Source of the DNA: a virus | DNA: 35,831 nt | Strand: one strand, 5' to 3' | IMG/VR virus record: IMGVR_UViG_3300049911_000136 | Span: 1-35,831 of that record | Shown here: in pieces, positions 1-35,649 of the stretch | Numbering within the stretch: the first letter of the stretch is position 1 | How the letters are laid out: the number at the start of each line of letters is the position of its first letter | Notes under the pieces: generated by a model | The model's database searches: none | What the model was told of the DNA's origin: nothing | The model's input: the letters and a program-made list of their open reading frames with translations, nothing else | Made by a program: the position numbers and the translations under genes

Positions 1-120
1 ATTCACAGGCTACAAGGCGTCCAGGAGGGCTTCAGGCGCGTCCGGAGAGGTAGGATATACCAAACTACGGCGTTTTGGATTTGGAGGCTTCACAGGGCAT
101 TTGTGGGCGAAAGGAGGTGC

Positions 121-214
121 GGTATGGTTGGGTCTGGTAAGGTTAGGTTAGGTTGGGTCTGGTAAGGCAGGCATTGTTGGGTTCGGTCGGGTCTTGTGGA
201 ATCTGGTGAGGTAT
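121..214 (+). repeat. GGTNN pentamer array A1
   Basis: This stretch is G/T-rich on the plus strand and built from GGT or GGC triplets spaced two bases apart, giving a 5-bp period with occasional phase slips. It starts just after a good Shine-Dalgarno-like AAGGAGG at 111-117 and ends 27 bases before the first gene. Two related arrays lie at 876-1335 and 3220-3308 in the same orientation. Bases 1-117 hold no gene I can support. The function is unknown. Confidence 0.8.
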
Positions 215-240
215 AGTTTTTTACTTGAAAGGGGATTTTG

Positions 241-855
241 ATGGCAAAGCAAGAAGTGGCAGTAAGTATTCAGGCGCTGAAGATAGCAAAGACAGAGGTC
301 AAGATTGCGGGAGACCTCCTAATCATTCACAAGTTCTCTGAAAAGTCAAGGAAGGAGATGCTGGGTAAGCAGATGGGCGCGGCGAAGAAAATCAGGGAAA
401 ATCGCGTTCCGGATGAAGAGGTTGAGCAGGCGCTTTACCGCTGCAATGGGAAGCCGGCGTTTCCCGCTGATGGCTTCAAAAAGGCGATAGTAAACGCTTG
501 CCGCTATGCTTCAGGACTTCCGATGACCAGGGCGCGCGGGATGTTTTTCGTGCGGGGAGTTTACGCTTCGGAAGAGGGCAGGGAACTCATACCGATAGAA
601 GGGAAACTTGAGAAGCGCGAGGATATTGGCAGGCTTGAGAACGGGGTCGCCTGCGTAATCTTCAGACCGCAGTTGCGGGATTGGACGGCGGTTCTCCCGA
701 TAGAGTATAACGCCGACCTGCTCTCCCTTGAGCAACTCATAAATCTCATCAACATTGCCGGCGCGATGGTGGGAGTCGGGGATTGGAGACCGGAGCGCGG
801 CGGAACGTTTGGCAGATTTCGCGTAGTTTTGGAGGAAAGAAAGGCGAAGAAATAG
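241..855 (+). CDS. Conserved phage protein with C-terminal Gly-rich loop (RAMP-like motif), function unknown
   Basis: This 204-residue protein starts at ATG 241, six bases after an AAAGGGGA ribosome site; the TTG at 238 is less likely. The first ~60 residues are rich in Lys and Glu with beta-like stretches near residues 8-30. The C-terminus, about residues 175-196, carries G-V-G-D-W-R-P-E-R-G-G-T-F-G-R-F. I associate this pattern with uncharacterised phage proteins, and it superficially resembles the G-rich loop of RAMP/Cas7-like RNA-binding folds. That resemblance is a motif-level inference only. The gene is flanked on both sides by GGTNN arrays and is the first gene before the packaging block. 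No catalytic residues are evident. It could equally be a ssDNA-binding or replication accessory protein. Confidence 0.75.
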   Translation: MAKQEVAVSIQALKIAKTEVKIAGDLLIIHKFSEKSRKEMLGKQMGAAKKIRENRVPDEEVEQALYRCNGKPAFPADGFKKAIVNACRYASGLPMTRARGMFFVRGVYASEEGRELIPIEGKLEKREDIGRLENGVACVIFRPQLRDWTAVLPIEYNADLLSLEQLINLINIAGAMVGVGDWRPERGGTFGRFRVVLEERKAKK

Positions 856-875
856 GTCAATTCAAACGCTAATGT

Positions 876-1335
876 GGTATGGTGTGGTTAGGTAAGATTT
901 TGCGAAGTCGGGTCTTGTGGAATTTGGCAAGGCAAGGCAGGTATTGTCCGGTCTGGTCCGGTCGGGTCGGGTCTGTTGGGGTGGGGTGGGGCATAGTTTG
1001 GTTGAATAGGGCGCTGTAAGGCAGGTGCGGTCAAGCAAGGTTTGGTAAGGTGCGGTGCGGTTTGGCAGGGCTTGGCAGGTATGGCGCGGTCTGGTGCGGT
1101 AGGATGGAGCATATTTGTGTTTGGCTTGGTTCGGTGAGGCAGGCAATATGAGGTAAGGTCTGGTGAGGTCTGGTCTGACAAAGTCCCGTCAGGTATGGTG
1201 AGGCGAGGCAATGTTTGGCAGGCGATGTTTTGTCAGGCTCGGTCTGGCAGGGTCAGGCAGGTTTTTGTATGGCACTGTATGGTCTGGTGCGGTAGGGCAA
1301 GGTAAGGCAGGTATGGTTTCGGTTTTTGGTTCTGG
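876..1335 (+). repeat. GGTNN pentamer array A2 (about 460 bp, fills the 856-1355 gap)
   Basis: This gap between two genes is filled by a degenerate pentamer array. It opens with GGTATGGTGTGGTTAGGTAA at 876-895 and continues for about 90 units in which GG recurs every 5 bases, the third base is usually T or C, and the last two vary. Phase slips are frequent, so no frame is maintained. The array ends just before the GAAAGGAG ribosome site of the next gene. Long Pro/Thr-rich open frames on the minus strand here are by-products of the repeat. Blocks of four units satisfy a two-tier G-quadruplex pattern (GG-N3 repeated). Confidence 0.85.
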
Positions 1336-1355
1336 AACTCTGAAAGGAGCGGAAG

Positions 1356-1847
1356 ATGGCAAAGACTTACGCTTGGAAGTCGGGCGCGCAGATAAAGGCA
1401 GACCCGCAGAAGGCAGCAAGAGAAATATACGCGCTGCACAAAAGGAACGGCGGCGTTACCGACCAGCAATTGATAGAGCAGGCAAAACCCGCGACTTCGG
1501 AACTGCACAGCGAATTCACGTGGAACGATAAAGTTTGCGGGGTGGAATATCGCAAGATGCAGGCGCGGCACATTTTGAACTGCCTTATCTTCCTCGTGGA
1601 GCGAGAAAACAAAGAACCGCTGGAAGTCAGAGCCTTCCAAAATATAGACTGGAAACCCGGAAGGCAAGGAGTTTATATCGCGGTGGAGAACATTCTATCG
1701 CAAGCAGATGGGCGCGCGCAATTGCTCCAGCAATTTTATGAGGATATTCAAGACTTGCGGCAGCGTTATCGCGATTTACAGGAATACACGGATATTTTTT
1801 TAGCAATGAATGAACTTGAGTTAGCAGTGAGCAAGGCTAAATCTTGA
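1356..1847 (+). CDS. Conserved phage protein, function unknown
   Basis: This 163-residue protein starts at ATG 1356 with GAAAGGAG upstream. Residues 1-45 look helical and contain a Gly-Gly turn at 32-33. The central stretch L-H-S-E-F-T-W-N-D at about 50-58 is followed by a region rich in Arg, Gln and His (Y-R-x-x-Q-A-R-H). That layout is common in uncharacterised phage proteins encoded near early or packaging genes. The C-terminal third is charged and probably a helical coiled segment (about 125-160). Its stop overlaps the TTG start of the next gene, so the two are translationally coupled. I cannot assign a function. Confidence 0.8.
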   Translation: MAKTYAWKSGAQIKADPQKAAREIYALHKRNGGVTDQQLIEQAKPATSELHSEFTWNDKVCGVEYRKMQARHILNCLIFLVERENKEPLEVRAFQNIDWKPGRQGVYIAVENILSQADGRAQLLQQFYEDIQDLRQRYRDLQEYTDIFLAMNELELAVSKAKS

Positions 1848-2116
1848 AAGTTCCGGAACTCCGAACCACTAACGCGAGCGCCGTCATTGGCGAGTTCACA
1901 TACGAGGCTTGCGCGGAGTGCGTCCACGGCGGAAGTTTCTTTGAGGAAGGCTGCGCGAAAAAAGTTATTTGCGCTGACACGGAATTAGGTATAGTATTTT
2001 GTCAGAGGTTCAAGAACAAGAACGAGGCGAGGTTTAGGCGCCGGCGAAAGTTCAGGAGAAAGTTCAGGTTCAACGTCTATTTGCCGCCGGAGATTGAGCG
2101 GGAGGGATACGAATAA
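1844..2116 (+). CDS. Small Cys-containing basic phage protein
   Basis: This 90-residue protein starts at TTG 1844, overlapping the preceding stop (TTGA), with AAGG eight bases upstream. Cysteines occur as C-A-E-C at about residues 20-23, then at about 35, 41 and 51, which suggests a zinc- or metal-binding fold. The C-terminal third is strongly basic (runs of Arg and Lys at about 60-75), so nucleic-acid binding is plausible. It lies between an uncharacterised phage gene and the DUF559 nuclease. The family is not recognised. Confidence 0.65.
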   Translation: MKVPELRTTNASAVIGEFTYEACAECVHGGSFFEEGCAKKVICADTELGIVFCQRFKNKNEARFRRRRKFRRKFRFNVYLPPEIEREGYE

Positions 2117-2148
2117 AATGTCCACAAGCCGAAAAGGAAAAAATAATT

Positions 2149-2619
2149 ATGCAGTTTCATAAAAATCCCTATCGGTGGATGCCGCGGAGAAAAAAGATAA
2201 AGCCGATAAAAATAGAACTGCTTGGTCGCGCCAAGAGAATAAAGGAAAAACCAACTCGCGCCGAAAAATGGGCGCGACAACTTTTGGACGTAACTTATTT
2301 GGGCGAAAAGTTTGAATCGCAAGTTATACAGGGTTATTATATTTGCGATTTTTTGTCACAAGAATACAAAATCGTGATAGAAATAGATGGTAAATACCAC
2401 TACAAAAGCCCATCTCAAACATTTTATGACGAAAAGAGAGATACCTATTTGACCGAAAGAGGCTTTTTCGTTTTGAGGATTCCCAATTCGCTCGTGCTTG
2501 ATTCCCCTCAAGCGTTTCTTGCGCTTGTGAAAAAAAGCATAGGTGGTCATAAGGCATTGAAACGCAGAAATCAACAAGCGAATATATACCGAAAGCGAAC
2601 AGGATGCGCGAAGCGATAG
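2149..2619 (+). CDS. DUF559 / Vsr-like endonuclease-fold protein
   Basis: This 156-residue protein has the features of the DUF559 family, a PD-(D/E)XK or Vsr-related fold. It shows T-R-A-E-K (36-40) at the start of the first helix, C-D-F (66-68) on a core strand, then I-E-I-D-G-K-Y-H (77-84). A following D-x-K-R-D-x-Y-L motif near 94-101 precedes a G-F-x-V-L-R-I strand (105-111). Likely catalytic acids are D67, E78 and D80. Members are found as lone nucleases and in mobile elements, and their biological role is poorly known. Here it sits directly upstream of the small terminase gene, where it might nick DNA during packaging or act as a selfish endonuclease. That role is inference. Confidence 0.85.
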   Translation: MQFHKNPYRWMPRRKKIKPIKIELLGRAKRIKEKPTRAEKWARQLLDVTYLGEKFESQVIQGYYICDFLSQEYKIVIEIDGKYHYKSPSQTFYDEKRDTYLTERGFFVLRIPNSLVLDSPQAFLALVKKSIGGHKALKRRNQQANIYRKRTGCAKR

Positions 2620-2648
2620 ATAAAAAAAGGCAGGGAAAGGTTGCTGAA

Positions 2649-3212
2649 ATGCTTCGGCTCGCAGCAACCAGCGATGCAAAATTCGCTTGGCTTCTCAAAC
2701 TTGCGGTTCAGGCTGGCTTCGCTCCAGTCCACGGGCGCGAGGCGGGCAGTTTGCTTCTTGTCACTCCGAAGGCGCTCGCAGATGGCTTTGGAGTCACGGA
2801 GCGCACAATTAGGTCGTGGCTAAAAGAAGGGATGCCAATGCATCAAGGCTCTGTTGGCAATAAGCCTGCGCTTTATAATGTGTTTGATATTTTTAGATGG
2901 CGTCTAAGCCGAATTGAAACGGGCGAAAGCGACCCGCTGATGCGCGGAGGAAGTTCTCCAGCGCTTGAGCGTTATCGGGCGGCGAAGGCATCTCAGGCGG
3001 AGCGGGAGAATAAGAAGGCGGAGGGGCAACTTGTGGAAAGCGCGATTGTGAGTATGCAACTGGCTGAAGTTGGACGCAGTTTCAAAGTCGGTGCGGAAAT
3101 TGTAGCGCGATTACATGGCGCGAAAGTAGGCGCCGCGATTAGAGAATTGGTAGATAAGGCTCAAGGTGATTGGGAAAGACTGGGATTGAAAAAGCGCAAA
3201 AAAGGAAAATAG
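2649..3212 (+). CDS. Terminase small subunit, Nu1-like
   Basis: This product recognises the packaging site and loads the large terminase. I chose ATG 2649 (187 residues) because AAAGG lies eight bases upstream. ATG 2604 in the same frame adds 15 residues, overlaps the DUF559 gene and has no well-spaced ribosome site, but it cannot be excluded. A helix-turn-helix spans about residues 38-65, with the sequence T-E-R-T-I-R-S-W-L-K-E-G-M-P typical of Nu1-type proteins. A Tyr-containing wing follows, then a long charged helix (R-Y-R-A-A-K-A-S-Q-A-E-R-E-N-K-K-A-E-G-Q). The adjacent GpA-type large subunit supports the call. A GGTNN array lies between this gene and the large subunit. Confidence 0.87.
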   Translation: MLRLAATSDAKFAWLLKLAVQAGFAPVHGREAGSLLLVTPKALADGFGVTERTIRSWLKEGMPMHQGSVGNKPALYNVFDIFRWRLSRIETGESDPLMRGGSSPALERYRAAKASQAERENKKAEGQLVESAIVSMQLAEVGRSFKVGAEIVARLHGAKVGAAIRELVDKAQGDWERLGLKKRKKGK

Positions 3213-3219
3213 AAGATTT

Positions 3220-3308
3220 GGTTCGCTGCGGTCGGTTGTGGTCTGGTAAGGCGCGGTCGGGTCCGGTATAATTCGGTGCGGTAAGGCTGGGTATGGCAGG
3301 TATGGTGA
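3220..3308 (+). repeat. GGTNN pentamer array A3 (between small and large terminase genes)
   Basis: This is the third copy of the degenerate 5-bp array, about 18 units in the same orientation as A1 and A2. It occupies nearly all of the space between the stop of the small terminase gene and the CAGGAG ribosome site of the large terminase gene. The terS-terL interval is a common place for packaging signals, so a role in DNA recognition or in mRNA binding is possible but not shown. Confidence 0.8.
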
Positions 3309-3322
3309 GACAGGAGTAGAAA

Positions 3323-5299
3323 ATGATAGGCACAAGAAAAAACATACGGTTGCCAGTCAGCGCGCTCTTCTCCGCAATGCGTCCGCGTCAGGTTCGCACG
3401 ATGCGCCAGTTCGCGGAGGAGGAGATTATACTTCCGCCGGGCGGACCGCGGGCGGGCTTGCGCTTCTCCTGCGACTTTATGCCGTGGACGGGGCTGATTC
3501 TGGACGAGTTTGACGCGGGGCGCTATAAGATTTTTGCCATCTCGGGTCCGGTTCAAGATGGCAAAACGACCCTTGCTCTAATAATTCCGATGGCGTATTT
3601 CCTCTTTGAGATGCAGGAGAACATCATCTTCGCGGCGCCGAAGATGGAGATAGGACAGGGAAAGTTTGAGACCGAAATAAAGCCTATGATTCTGCATACT
3701 GCTTATGCGAATCTTTTGCCGGAGACAGGGCGCGGCGTGCGCGGCGGCAGGTCGGAGTCTATTTTGTTCGGCAACGGCGCACGCCTGCGGTTTATGGCTG
3801 CTGGCGGTGGCGAAGAGCAGCGAAGGGCTTTTCCCGCGCGGATAGTTTTTATCACAGAGGCGGATGTGCTGACTTGGTTTCAGGTCTCGGAGATAATCGC
3901 GCGAACCGCATCGTTCGCAAAGGTTGACCTTGCTTATACATTTATGGAATCCACGATGTCCAAGACAAGCGGGCGGATGAATCAGGAAATTACTGTGAAC
4001 GGGACGAACAGTAAAATCGCCATCCCCTGCCCTCACTGCGGAAGTTATATCATCCCGGAGCGCGAACAGTTCAAAGGCTGGCAGGATGCGAAAAATGTAA
4101 TAGAGGCGCGCGAGAAAAGCGCTTATGTGTGTCAGGAATGCGGTAAGGCGTGGACAGAAGAAGAGCGGATGACCGCGCTCAATAAGCCGGTTCTGATTGC
4201 GGAAGGGCAGACTGTTGACAGGCAGGGCAATCTTCAGGGCGAGCCGCCGCCGACCCGGACCTTCGGCTTTCGCTGGAATGCGATGCACAGCGCCCTGAAG
4301 AGTCAAGCATTTGTCGGGCAAAAGGAATTTGAGGCGAACCGCTTGGGAACTTCAGATGCACAGAAGGAATTGATGCAGTTCACTTGGGCATTGCCCTGGG
4401 AAGAGGAGCCGGAGGATTTGTCAAGTATAGACGTAAAATCGGTGCAGGAGAAACTGAATAAGTACCCGAGAGGCGTTGTGCCAAACGAAGCCAAGTTTCT
4501 CACGATGGGTATTGATGTTGGAATTTCAGATTTGCATTGGACGGCTTGGGCGTGGACGGGCGATGCGCAAGGATACCTGATAGATTACAGAGCGGCTCCC
4601 GTTCCGCAACCCGACCCACACAGCAAAGACCCAAAAAATATATTACACGCATTGCGCAGTTTGAAAAATGAAATTCTTGATTTCGGTTGGCAGAAGGCAG
4701 ATGGCAGCAAGGTGATGCCGAATATAATACTCGTGGACTCTGGCTATAAGCCTGAATACACTTATTTTTTTACGCACGAGAATGCCAAACCATATTGGTC
4801 ATCAAAAGGGCTTGGTAGCAGACTCGGTCAAGACCGATGGCACGAGCCGCATCCAGCAAAGGGCAGGCAAATAGGGCGCAACTGGTTTATCTCGCGGCAA
4901 TCGGATGAATACAGGACTCGCCTGATATGCGTGAATTCAGACGAATGGAAGCGCGAAGTCCACGAGGGTTTTCGCATTCTCCTCGGTGCGCCCGGAAGCC
5001 TATCTCTCTTTCAGGGTAGCCCGACCCATCACCTGCAATTTGCAAAGCAGATAACGGCGGAGCGGCAAATAGAAGAGCGAATTCCAGGCAAAGGAATTCA
5101 TATTTATTGGTATCAAGAACATTATGCGAATCACTATCTTGACTGCACGGCGTTGTGCCGGTGTGCTGCCGACATTCTTGGCGTGAGCGCCTTGCCGCGC
5201 GCGAGACCGCCTGTCAGACCATCTGTGAGTGAAAAGGCAAAAGCGCCTGAAGATCAGGTTGCGGTTGCGGGGGAACGGAGAATTAGGACGAGATATTGA
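3323..5299 (+). CDS. Terminase large subunit, GpA family
   Basis: This 658-residue motor-nuclease cuts concatemeric phage DNA and pumps it into proheads. The start is ATG 3323 with CAGGAG upstream. The ATPase domain has a Walker A-like S-G-P-V-Q-D-G-K-T-T (74-83) and a Walker B strand I-V-F-I-T-E-A-D (174-181). A zinc ribbon is formed by C236, C239, C270 and C273. The RNase H-like nuclease carries acidic residues in G-I-D-V-G (D398) and V-D-S-G (D472). Length and order match lambda gpA, and a cos-type mechanism is therefore possible but not proven. The C-terminal tail (about 625-658) is Pro/Lys-rich and probably binds the portal. Confidence 0.96.
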   Translation: MIGTRKNIRLPVSALFSAMRPRQVRTMRQFAEEEIILPPGGPRAGLRFSCDFMPWTGLILDEFDAGRYKIFAISGPVQDGKTTLALIIPMAYFLFEMQENIIFAAPKMEIGQGKFETEIKPMILHTAYANLLPETGRGVRGGRSESILFGNGARLRFMAAGGGEEQRRAFPARIVFITEADVLTWFQVSEIIARTASFAKVDLAYTFMESTMSKTSGRMNQEITVNGTNSKIAIPCPHCGSYIIPEREQFKGWQDAKNVIEAREKSAYVCQECGKAWTEEERMTALNKPVLIAEGQTVDRQGNLQGEPPPTRTFGFRWNAMHSALKSQAFVGQKEFEANRLGTSDAQKELMQFTWALPWEEEPEDLSSIDVKSVQEKLNKYPRGVVPNEAKFLTMGIDVGISDLHWTAWAWTGDAQGYLIDYRAAPVPQPDPHSKDPKNILHALRSLKNEILDFGWQKADGSKVMPNIILVDSGYKPEYTYFFTHENAKPYWSSKGLGSRLGQDRWHEPHPAKGRQIGRNWFISRQSDEYRTRLICVNSDEWKREVHEGFRILLGAPGSLSLFQGSPTHHLQFAKQITAERQIEERIPGKGIHIYWYQEHYANHYLDCTALCRCAADILGVSALPRARPPVRPSVSEKAKAPEDQVAVAGERRIRTRY

Positions 5300-33622: not shown

Positions 33623-34840
33623 GTGGCAGACTGGCGCAACAAGGTGCTTTACTGCGATGTGCGGGAGGGGCTGGCGGGAATGCCCGATGGCTGCGTGCAG
33701 TGCGTAGTTACTTCTCCTCCTTACTGGGGCTTGCGCAAATATGCAGGCGAGCAGGATGTTGACTGGTCTGACGGCTGGCGTGGCGCGTTAGGGCTTGAGC
33801 CGCAAATTGAAATGTATATCGCACACATCGTTCAGATATTCCGCGAGGTTCGCCGCGTCTTGCGCAAGGATGGCGTGTGTTTTGTAAATATCGGAGATGC
33901 GTATAATACAATGGGTGGCAAAGGACGCAATAGATATTTTGACGGACGAAAAGATGAATTTGCCGCTGGGAATAGACCGCTTGAAGACCCTCGTGGGAAA
34001 GAGATTGGCTTGAAGAATAAAGACCTCTGCCTCATTCCCGCCCGCCTTGCGCTTGCGCTTCAGGCTGACGGCTGGTATGTGCGCTCGGATATTATCTGGG
34101 TCAAGCCGAATCCGATGCCTGAAAGCGTTACTGACCGCCCGTCAAAATCCTACGACCACATCTTGATGCTGACAAAGAGCGCGCGCTATTACTATGATTC
34201 CGAAGCCATCAAGGAGAAATATACCGAGCCGCTCAATCGCTGGGGAGGTCCTGTATTCAGAGAATCAAGCCATAAGTATATTGAGATGGGCGGACACGAT
34301 GGCAAACAACAATATGGCGCTACCTCTATGTTCAGGGAAGGCAGACCTGTTCGCCCTAATGAATCAGGTAGAAATTGTCGGGATACTTGGATTTTTCCCA
34401 CAGTCGGCTACTCTGGCGCACATTTCGCCGTTTTTCCTCCCGAACTACCGCGCCGCTGCATACTGGCAGGCAGCAGCCACAAGGCTTGCCCGAAATGCGG
34501 CAGCCCGTGGAAGAGGATAACCAGACCCGATTATAGGGAAAGTCCAAGACCGCCGACATCATTTATCAGACAACAAAACCCACAGGGAATGGGACGTAGT
34601 CCAGGATTTGCCAAGCACGGACACGCGACAAAGATTGCAGAGACTCTCGGCTGGCAGCCGACCTGTTCCTGTTCCGAGAATGACGGCTCAGGGCGCTGTC
34701 TGATACTTGACCCCTTCGCTGGCAGTGGCACGACCCTTGCCGTAGCCGCGCAACTCGGACGCGATTACTGCGGCATAGAGATTGCCGAAGAATATAAAAG
34801 TCTAATTGACAAGCGCCTTAAGCGCGTTAGAAAAGCTTGA
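33623..34840 (+). CDS. DNA methyltransferase (beta-class, TSPPYW), N4-cytosine or N6-adenine
   Basis: This 405-residue protein starts at GTG 33623 right after the MT-A70 fragment; the ribosome site is weak. Motif IV T-S-P-P-Y-W (30-35) precedes motif I D-P-F-A-G-S-G-T-T (363-371), the order of beta-class enzymes. The central insert, about 120-300, carries two C-x-x-C-like clusters, including C-P-K-C and C-x-C (near 290-350), likely a zinc site and target recognition region. The TSPPYW form favours N4-cytosine, but N6-adenine cannot be excluded. It probably protects phage DNA from host restriction. No restriction endonuclease partner is seen. Confidence 0.92.
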   Translation: MADWRNKVLYCDVREGLAGMPDGCVQCVVTSPPYWGLRKYAGEQDVDWSDGWRGALGLEPQIEMYIAHIVQIFREVRRVLRKDGVCFVNIGDAYNTMGGKGRNRYFDGRKDEFAAGNRPLEDPRGKEIGLKNKDLCLIPARLALALQADGWYVRSDIIWVKPNPMPESVTDRPSKSYDHILMLTKSARYYYDSEAIKEKYTEPLNRWGGPVFRESSHKYIEMGGHDGKQQYGATSMFREGRPVRPNESGRNCRDTWIFPTVGYSGAHFAVFPPELPRRCILAGSSHKACPKCGSPWKRITRPDYRESPRPPTSFIRQQNPQGMGRSPGFAKHGHATKIAETLGWQPTCSCSENDGSGRCLILDPFAGSGTTLAVAAQLGRDYCGIEIAEEYKSLIDKRLKRVRKA

Positions 34841-35649
34841 ACGTGAAATATACGAACAAAGAAGACCTGCGACCCTCTATGCCGTTTTATGTGAAAGATT
34901 GGCTTGGTTGCCCTGAATTGAGAAGATGCGGTCGCGCGGCGATGGGACTCTGGATGGATATGCTGTGTGAGATGTGGATGAATAATCCGCGGGGAACGCT
35001 GCTGCACGGCAAACCAGTCTCCGATAACAAACCGATAACAAACGATAACAAACGATACGAAGGGTATAACAAACGCGATAACAAACTCATAACAGAACTG
35101 GAACGCGAAAAGGTATTCTCCCGCTTTGAGGATGGCACTATCTATTGTCGCCGTATGTATAGAGAGGCTTTGGAAGAACGGCAGATAGGAGAAGCCAGAA
35201 GTGAGGCTGGAAAGCGCGGAATGGCTTCTCGCTGGCATAACAAAGCCATAACAAGAGATGATAACAAACCGATAACAAACATAACATCTGCATCTGCATC
35301 TGCATCTGCATCTGCATCTAAAACGTTGCGCGGCGATAACAAAACCGCCGCGCCAAAGAGCGGCGATCCCGCCGCAACGCTTCCTTCGGAAAAAGCCAAA
35401 GACGAAGACCAAAAATTCAAAACCCAGTTTCACGTGGAGTGGGAGAATTGGGTTATCCGAAAGACAAAACTTCACCCAGAGAAGAGAGACCTCCCGCGTA
35501 TGCATGCGATGCTGGATGAGTTTATCAAGCGCTCCGGGCTCTATCCTGTCAATCGCCTATTCAACGCATTCGCCGGTCGCGGCACACATTCACTGGACGA
35601 GTTCTTTGAGGCGGTCAAGAAACTGCCGGATATTATTCAGGGAAGGTGA
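34837..35649 (+). CDS. Replication initiator / DUF1376-like protein
   Basis: This 270-residue protein starts at TTG 34837 (overlapping the methyltransferase stop) or at GTG 34843. The N-terminus, P-F-Y-V-K-D-W-L-G-C-P-E-L (16-28) and G-L-W-M-D-M-L-C-E-M-W (37-47), matches DUF1376-type winged-helix proteins of phage replication modules. The middle (60-155) is low in complexity, with D-N-K-P-I-T repeats and an alternating Ser/Ala stretch made by a CATCTG hexamer. The C-terminal domain (about 175-270) has W-E-N-W and F-N-A-F-A-G-R-G motifs like DnaT or DnaD regions. The low-complexity DNA carries iterons, so the gene likely contains its own origin, as lambda O does. Confidence 0.82.
   Translation: MNVKYTNKEDLRPSMPFYVKDWLGCPELRRCGRAAMGLWMDMLCEMWMNNPRGTLLHGKPVSDNKPITNDNKRYEGYNKRDNKLITELEREKVFSRFEDGTIYCRRMYREALEERQIGEARSEAGKRGMASRWHNKAITRDDNKPITNITSASASASASASKTLRGDNKTAAPKSGDPAATLPSEKAKDEDQKFKTQFHVEWENWVIRKTKLHPEKRDLPRMHAMLDEFIKRSGLYPVNRLFNAFAGRGTHSLDEFFEAVKKLPDIIQGR
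35023..35344 (+). repeat. GATAACAAAC iterons, candidate replication origin
   Basis: Six exact GATAACAAAC decamers occur at 35023, 35034, 35044, 35077, 35260 and 35271. A one-mismatch copy (GATAACAAAA) is at 35335, and close variants lie at 35065, 35088, 35236 and 35247. Spacing is 10-11 bases or multiples thereof in each cluster, so copies face the same side of the helix. They fall in two different codon frames of the host gene, which shows that the DNA rather than the peptide is conserved. All lie inside the initiator gene. Confidence 0.8.
35285..35319 (+). repeat. CATCTG hexanucleotide tandem repeat
   Basis: The hexamer CATCTG is repeated five times plus a five-base remnant, immediately after the iterons. 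It encodes alternating Ser and Ala. Copy number is in frame, so slippage would only change linker length. Confidence 0.9.

What the first reader, a model, noticed from the sequence alone, without database searches (positions are those of the whole stretch)
121..3308. Three G/T-rich GGTNN pentamer arrays in the left-end intergenic regions
About 640 bp of non-coding DNA at 121-214, 876-1335 and 3220-3308 is made of GGT/GGC triplets spaced by two variable bases. The orientation and base bias are the same in all three, and each sits between a stop codon and the next ribosome site. The 5-bp period with drifting phase is neither an ordinary tandem repeat nor codon-based. All copies lie in the first 3.3 kb around the terminase genes. 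Possible roles: a packaging signal, a binding array for a ring-shaped RNA-binding protein (TRAP reads similar 5-nt-spaced triplets in other mRNAs), two-tier G-quadruplexes, or a host-derived repeat that expands. I know of no described element of this form.
Basis: partly seen in the sequence, partly recalled or inferred. Interest (0 to 1): 0.78.

Follow-up and report, generated by a model that had tools for sequence, protein, structure and literature searches.

The report
VIPR guide-RNA arrays in a phage
The odd GGTNN stretches are guide-RNA arrays of the recently described VIPR system, a phage-encoded relative of CRISPR that reads DNA through spaced two-letter codes, and two of this virus's guides match packaging-region genes of other viruses, one of them its closest known relative.

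Summary
Three same-strand arrays of GGY triplets with a 5-nt period lie at 116-214, 876-1319 and 3215-3308, far above shuffled DNA. They are not a packaging signal, TRAP site or G-quadruplex. They flank a gene (241-855, PHROG 4652) whose product matches the solved phage SUSP1 Vipr protein and folds like Csm3/Cas7 RAMPs. This is a VIPR (Viral Interference Programmable Repeat) locus, a kind described in a 2026 preprint (PMC13142463): GGY is scaffold, and the NN dinucleotides, read with a 1-nt skip, specify a DNA target.

What is added here: (1) about nine guides decoded. (2) Of four guides scanned in IMG/VR, two have strong 1-nt-skip targets. The array-3 guide (12 consecutive NN) hits the small-terminase gene of the window's closest sampled relative; another (23/24 bases) hits a small gene just upstream of a large terminase. 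All skip bases fall on codon third positions. (3) That relative lacks the whole vipr-array cassette; its empty site is found. (4) The phase drift is a punctuation: guide units are joined by a 4-nt GGCA step, tracking a downstream gene, B (16 of 19 loci with B, 1 of 30 without). New member of a known kind.

The parts
80..101 (+). Left flank, 22/22 identical in relative G001 (L273); cassette insertion point just downstream
   Evidence: blastn; flank sequences
116..169 (+). Array 1, guide unit W1 (10 NN + GGCA)
170..219 (+). Array 1, guide unit W2
241..855 (+). vipr gene (RAMP protein, PHROG 4652, 204 aa)
876..939 (+). Array 2, guide unit W3 (shares a stretch with W2, probable duplication)
940..1023 (+). 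Array 2, guide unit W4
1024..1077 (+). Array 2, guide unit W5
1078..1141 (+). Array 2, guide unit W6; target in L297/G002, 23/24 bases at 1-nt skip
1142..1220 (+). Array 2, guide unit W7 (no significant target found)
1221..1309 (+). Array 2, guide unit W8 (one or two units; junction at 1256 ambiguous)
1310..1319 (+). Array 2, two leftover repeats after the last GGCA
1356..1847 (+). Gene B (PHROG 15946), candidate vipr-accessory protein; linked to GGCA-punctuated arrays
1844..2116 (+). Gene C: right flank; its 5' part aligns with the relative's DNA right after the empty site (not part of VIPR)
2604..3212 (+). Small terminase gene (Nu1-like); homologue of the gene hit by W9 in G001; own site matches W9 at only 9 of 16 NN
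3215..3298 (+). Array 3, guide unit W9; target in the small-terminase gene of G001
3299..3308 (+). Array 3, leftover repeats after GGCA
3323..5299 (+). Large terminase gene (gpA-like), 73% identical to G001

Best explanation
The arrays are vrRNA genes of a phage VIPR system. Transcribed with vipr and the neighbouring genes, the RNA gives units of about 9-17 GGY-NN repeats separated by GGCA. Vipr, a single-domain RAMP, would coat each unit, about one subunit per 5 nt (inferred). GGY is bound as scaffold and each NN is shown to double-stranded DNA; target reading is NN-x-NN-x (1-nt skip), mostly on codon positions 1 and 2. Binding represses the target gene. Here at least two guides point at packaging-region genes of other viruses, so the likely role is suppression of a related or competing virus in the same cell. 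Shown here: array form, Vipr homology and fold, genomic linkage, sequence targets, empty site in the relative. Taken from the preprint: RNP formation, skip rule, repression. Inferred: that this locus is expressed and active.
For: Vipr: a profile of 26 array-linked proteins hits PDB 36pp 'SUSP1 Vipr protein', E 9e-30; the window protein alone hits it at 7e-7. Its AlphaFold model (pLDDT 90.9) has Csm3/Csm-complex RAMP chains as top fold matches, E 2e-6, probability 1.0. Linkage: a vipr gene lies beside the arrays in 36 of 52 IMG/VR array loci by ORF, three more by six-frame search, and many of the rest are short or cut; 94 of 97 arrays are on the vipr strand. The same holds in six isolate phages of Mycobacterium, Gordonia, a cyanobacterium, Citrobacter and Pseudomonas. 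NN entropy is about 3.5-3.9 of 4 bits in the larger arrays. Targets: W9 in G001 scores 27/32 at skip 1 against 19/32 at skips 0, 2 and 3 and at most 20 in shuffles; W6 in G002 scores 23/24 against 16-17; all skip bases are codon third positions. G001 was independently found to be the only close terminase relative (73%). Positive control: a guide of Pseudomonas phage LESphi2 searched at 1-nt skip gave two hits, both in one homologous gene, differing from each other only at skip positions. Empty site.
Against: No transcript or protein data for this virus. About 26% of triplets are not GGY, so some units may be decayed. Two of the four guides scanned (W1, W7) gave only chance-like hits, and five were not scanned. 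W9 matches G001 at 13 of 16 NN, so the real target may be an unsampled relative. No conserved structured 3' tail as in SUSP1 was identified, and Rfam gave no credible match. No sigma-70-type promoter excess was found.
Confidence: 0.92

Rival explanations
1. A TRAP-like ring protein binds the triplet array in the mRNA and controls translation or termination of the packaging genes.
For: 5-nt spacing of triplets with 2-nt spacers resembles TRAP sites (own knowledge); array form confirmed.
Against: Triplet is GGY, not (G/U)AG. No TRAP family appears among the proteins scanned with Pfam. The linked protein is a RAMP. NN dinucleotides match foreign genes under the skip rule, which a cis-regulatory array would not need.
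Confidence: 0.02
2. The arrays are part of the cos/pac packaging signal of a lambda-like phage.
For: Arrays 1-3 surround terminase genes here.
Against: In other phages the arrays follow vipr, e.g. between tail and tape-measure genes in Gordonia phage ODay or next to the repressor in LESphi2. The closest relative, with 73% identical TerL, has no array.
Confidence: 0.02
3. A decayed VIPR locus: formerly guide arrays, now drifting and inactive.
For: About 26% non-GGY triplets and one unit with a possible 1-nt indel, versus near-perfect GGY in L073.
Against: vipr and gene B are intact reading frames. NN register and target matches continue through non-GGY triplets in W6 and W9. GGCA phase is kept in most units.
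Confidence: 0.12
4. Low-complexity or slippage-expanded DNA without function.
For: G/T-rich, short period.
Against: NN is near random while GGY is fixed across many unrelated viruses, with strict strand and gene linkage; slippage would copy NN too.
Confidence: 0.01

Closest known systems
VIPR system of Escherichia phage SUSP1 (type II; PMC13142463, PDB 36pp)
   Same: Vipr RAMP; GGY/NN arrays flanking vipr; phage-encoded; targets readable with 1-nt skip; skip base on codon third position
   Different: SUSP1-clade arrays are separate ~100-nt RNAs with a structured 3' tail; here units are fused head to tail with a GGCA 4-nt step, GGY is looser, and the neighbouring gene is B (PHROG 15946)
[quoted passage not shown] S18 of the same preprint)
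   Same: Possibly the same architecture as the GGCA-punctuated arrays
   Different: Supplement could not be read, so identity is unverified
Class 1 CRISPR effectors (Csm3/Cas7 RAMP backbones)
   Same: RAMP fold, protein filament on guide RNA (own knowledge)
   Different: No identical repeats and spacers; guide bases are interrupted every 2 nt; no cas genes detected in the scanned proteins
TRAP-mRNA (G/U)AG arrays
   Same: Triplets spaced by two variable bases
   Different: Different triplet and protein, and NN carries target information

Membership tests
VIPR | Vipr protein: small single-domain RAMP with G-rich loop | tested here: met
   sequence; fold; 204 aa; conserved glycine-rich C-terminal motif. 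Thumb not examined separately
VIPR | Arrays of about 9-16 repeats with constant GGY and hypervariable NN | tested here: met
   Units W1-W9 of about 10-17 repeats, NN highly variable, GGY in about 74% of triplets
VIPR | Target readable as NN with 1-nt skip | tested here: met
   W9 and W6; W1 and W7 without target; others not scanned
VIPR | Phage-encoded, arrays beside vipr | tested here: met
VIPR | Accessory vap gene | tested here: inconclusive
   Gene B recurs beside vipr, but its fold search gave no significant match and the vap list was not readable
VIPR | Invariable 3' tail on vrRNA | tested here: inconclusive
   Only the GGCA junction is constant; no Rfam match above gathering score. The preprint details the tail structure for the SUSP1 clade
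VIPR | vrRNA expressed and bound by Vipr; target repression | not testable with these tools
   Needs sRNA-seq, pull-down, reporter assay
CRISPR-Cas | Array of identical repeats with unique spacers | tested here: not met
   No such repeats in the arrays
TRAP binding site | (G/U)AG triplets and a TRAP protein | tested here: not met
   Triplet is GGY; no TRAP family in scanned window proteins

The most novel reading that the evidence does not exclude
A distinct VIPR array architecture: many guides fused into one tract and separated by a GGCA 4-nt frame step, tied to gene B, which may recognise or process the GGCA junction; used here by a phage against the packaging genes of its sister phage, from which it differs by having gained the whole cassette.
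Probability: 0.4. Interest if true: 0.7.

Novelty: new member of a known kind. Interest (0 to 1): 0.55.

Why it matters
VIPR was published only in 2026, from a few cultured systems. This window gives an uncultured lambda-like phage with a readable guide set, a relative that lacks the cassette, and a guide aimed at that relative's small-terminase gene while the phage's own copy is mismatched: a concrete case of phage-on-phage interference between sister phages. It also supports the 1-nt-skip rule from independent sequence data and suggests a punctuation rule for cutting fused arrays into guides.

Tried and rejected
W1 target: 11 hits in AT-rich viruses, none matching the tenth NN, judged chance. 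W7: 69 hits, best 25/30 in a 36-38% GC virus, judged chance. Cross-targeting among 226 guides and 2.2 Mb of fetched loci: no excess at skip 1. The search for related loci with the diverse Vipr alignment failed for lack of conserved stretches. Pfam and PADLOC give no family for Vipr. Gene B fold search: nothing significant. The DUF559 nuclease at 2149-2619 and gene C were considered as accessory genes, but are not found in other vipr loci. Rfam: only a sub-threshold chance hit.

Full report
WHAT IS THERE. The three arrays are real. At 116-214, 876-1319 and 3215-3308 GGY triplets recur every 5 nt, all on the + strand; runs of four or more occur nowhere else in the window and never on the other strand. 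Lag-5 GGY pairs exceed dinucleotide-preserving shuffles by many standard deviations in each region.

RELATIVES. About 50 viral loci hold irregular arrays, and in the larger ones NN entropy is about 3.5-3.9 of 4 bits. In one (L073) a 1.2-kb array lies between homologues of the same two genes as in the window. The protein of window 241-855 (PHROG 4652) has homologues beside the array in 36 of 52 array loci by ORF search, three more appear in a six-frame search, and many of the rest are short or cut pieces; 94 of 97 arrays are on its strand. tblastn finds it in 151 isolate phages. All six inspected carry GGYNN arrays next to it: Gordonia UmaThurman and ODay, Mycobacterium ByChance, cyanophage Cy-LDV1, Citrobacter Moogle, Pseudomonas LESphi2.

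IDENTITY. A profile of 26 of these proteins hits PDB 36pp, 'SUSP1 Vipr protein', at E 9e-30; Moogle's protein is nearly identical to it; the window protein alone reaches 7e-7. The AlphaFold model (pLDDT 90.9) matches Csm3/Csm RAMP chains first. The preprint PMC13142463 describes VIPR: a Vipr RAMP plus vrRNAs of 9-16 YNNGG repeats, with NN read against double-stranded DNA with a 1-nt skip, giving transcriptional repression, mostly in inter-phage conflict; seven types, several array forms and accessory vap genes. The window matches this kind.

ARRAY GRAMMAR. Units end in GGC-A and the next starts G(G/T)Y, a 4-nt step. In L073 all 18 intervals between GGCAGTT are 4 modulo 5. Over all loci 78 of 85 intervals are 4 modulo 5, and 79 of 91 four-nt steps are GGCA. 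The punctuation is present in 16 of 19 vipr loci with gene B (PHROG 15946) and in 1 of 30 without it. This may be the 'staggered' form of the preprint's fig. S18; the supplement could not be read. Gene B models well (pLDDT 91) but has no significant fold match; its helix-rich N-terminal part could be a winged helix (inference).

TARGETS. Parsing gives about nine guides, W1-W9. Positive control: nine NN of a LESphi2 guide, at 1-nt skip, hit two viral contigs in one homologous gene; the tenth NN also matches in both, and the two sites differ only at skip positions. Four window guides were scanned. W9 (8 NN searched, 24 hits) extends in L273 to 12 consecutive NN, 13 of 16 in all. W6 (8 NN, 2 hits) extends in L297 to 11 of 12 NN, 23 of 24 bases. 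Chance estimates after counting hits are about 4e-4 for four adjacent flanking NN (7e-3 for all flanking bases) for W9, and 8e-4 for W6. On the whole target contigs only skip 1 stands out: W9 27/32 against 19/32 at other skips and at most 20 in 20 shuffles; W6 23/24 against 16-17. In both, every skip base is a codon third position.

WHO IS TARGETED. L273 (record G001) is a syntenic relative of the window: TerL 73%, TerS 66% identical, matching head and tail genes, and the only close hit of an independent terminase search. W9 lies antisense in its TerS gene, in the 3' half. The window's own TerS has the homologous site but matches only 9 of 16 NN (23/32). L297 (G002, 61 kb) shares no detectable protein with the window; W6 lies in a 69-codon gene upstream of its large terminase.

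EMPTY SITE. G001 shares window 80-101 (22/22) and then continues with DNA matching window 1848-2014, so array 1, vipr, array 2 and gene B (about 1.75 kb) are absent; 21 nt lie between the two matches. The junction falls between a shared GCGAAAG stretch and the start of gene C. Array 3 is also absent: in G001 the TerS and TerL frames overlap. No Vipr match was found in G001 or G002. G001 is a fragment, so a copy elsewhere is not excluded.

LIMITS. No expression data. About a quarter of triplets are not GGY, although target matches run through such triplets in W6 and W9. Five guides were not scanned, and two gave only chance-like hits. The exact target of W9 may be an unsampled sibling, since two of its last three NN differ from G001. 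Host unknown: no close cultured relative of the terminase.

VERDICT. A member of the VIPR kind, with a decoded guide set, a sister-phage target, an empty site and a gene-B-linked punctuation that may mark a distinct array type.

Noticed in passing
L246:3625-3948 (NC_031249.1 33362-33685): Gordonia phage UmaThurman gp40 (YP_009302876.1) is annotated as a protein but lies almost wholly inside a GGYNN guide array; probably a false gene call.
   Followed up: partly
L073:3202-4392: A 1.2-kb array of about 19 GGCAGTT-separated guide units with near-perfect GGY, including near-duplicate guides (units at 3547 and 3690), suggesting repeated targeting of variants of one site.
   Followed up: partly
L202:1013-1751: A bacterial MAG contig (isolate DBS2-4.bin128) with a Vipr homologue (E 8e-32) and a GGYNN array just downstream.
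   Followed up: partly
window 2149-2619: DUF559 nuclease gene; in the same interval the relative G001 has a C5 cytosine methyltransferase-like gene and a ParB-like gene, so this is a variable spot beside the VIPR cassette.
   Followed up: no
L250:2296-2486 and 3632-4055: In Citrobacter phage Moogle the arrays alternate with a repeated element (GGGTAGTTAGTCTCAGCTACATTAAAATGAGACTTA-type), presumably the vrRNA 3' tail described for the SUSP1 clade.
   Followed up: no
window 35021-35094 and 35285-35319: Short tandem repeats (about 11-nt CGATAACAAA-type and CATCTG x6) inside the reading frame 34837-35649 (replisome-organizer-like).
   Followed up: no
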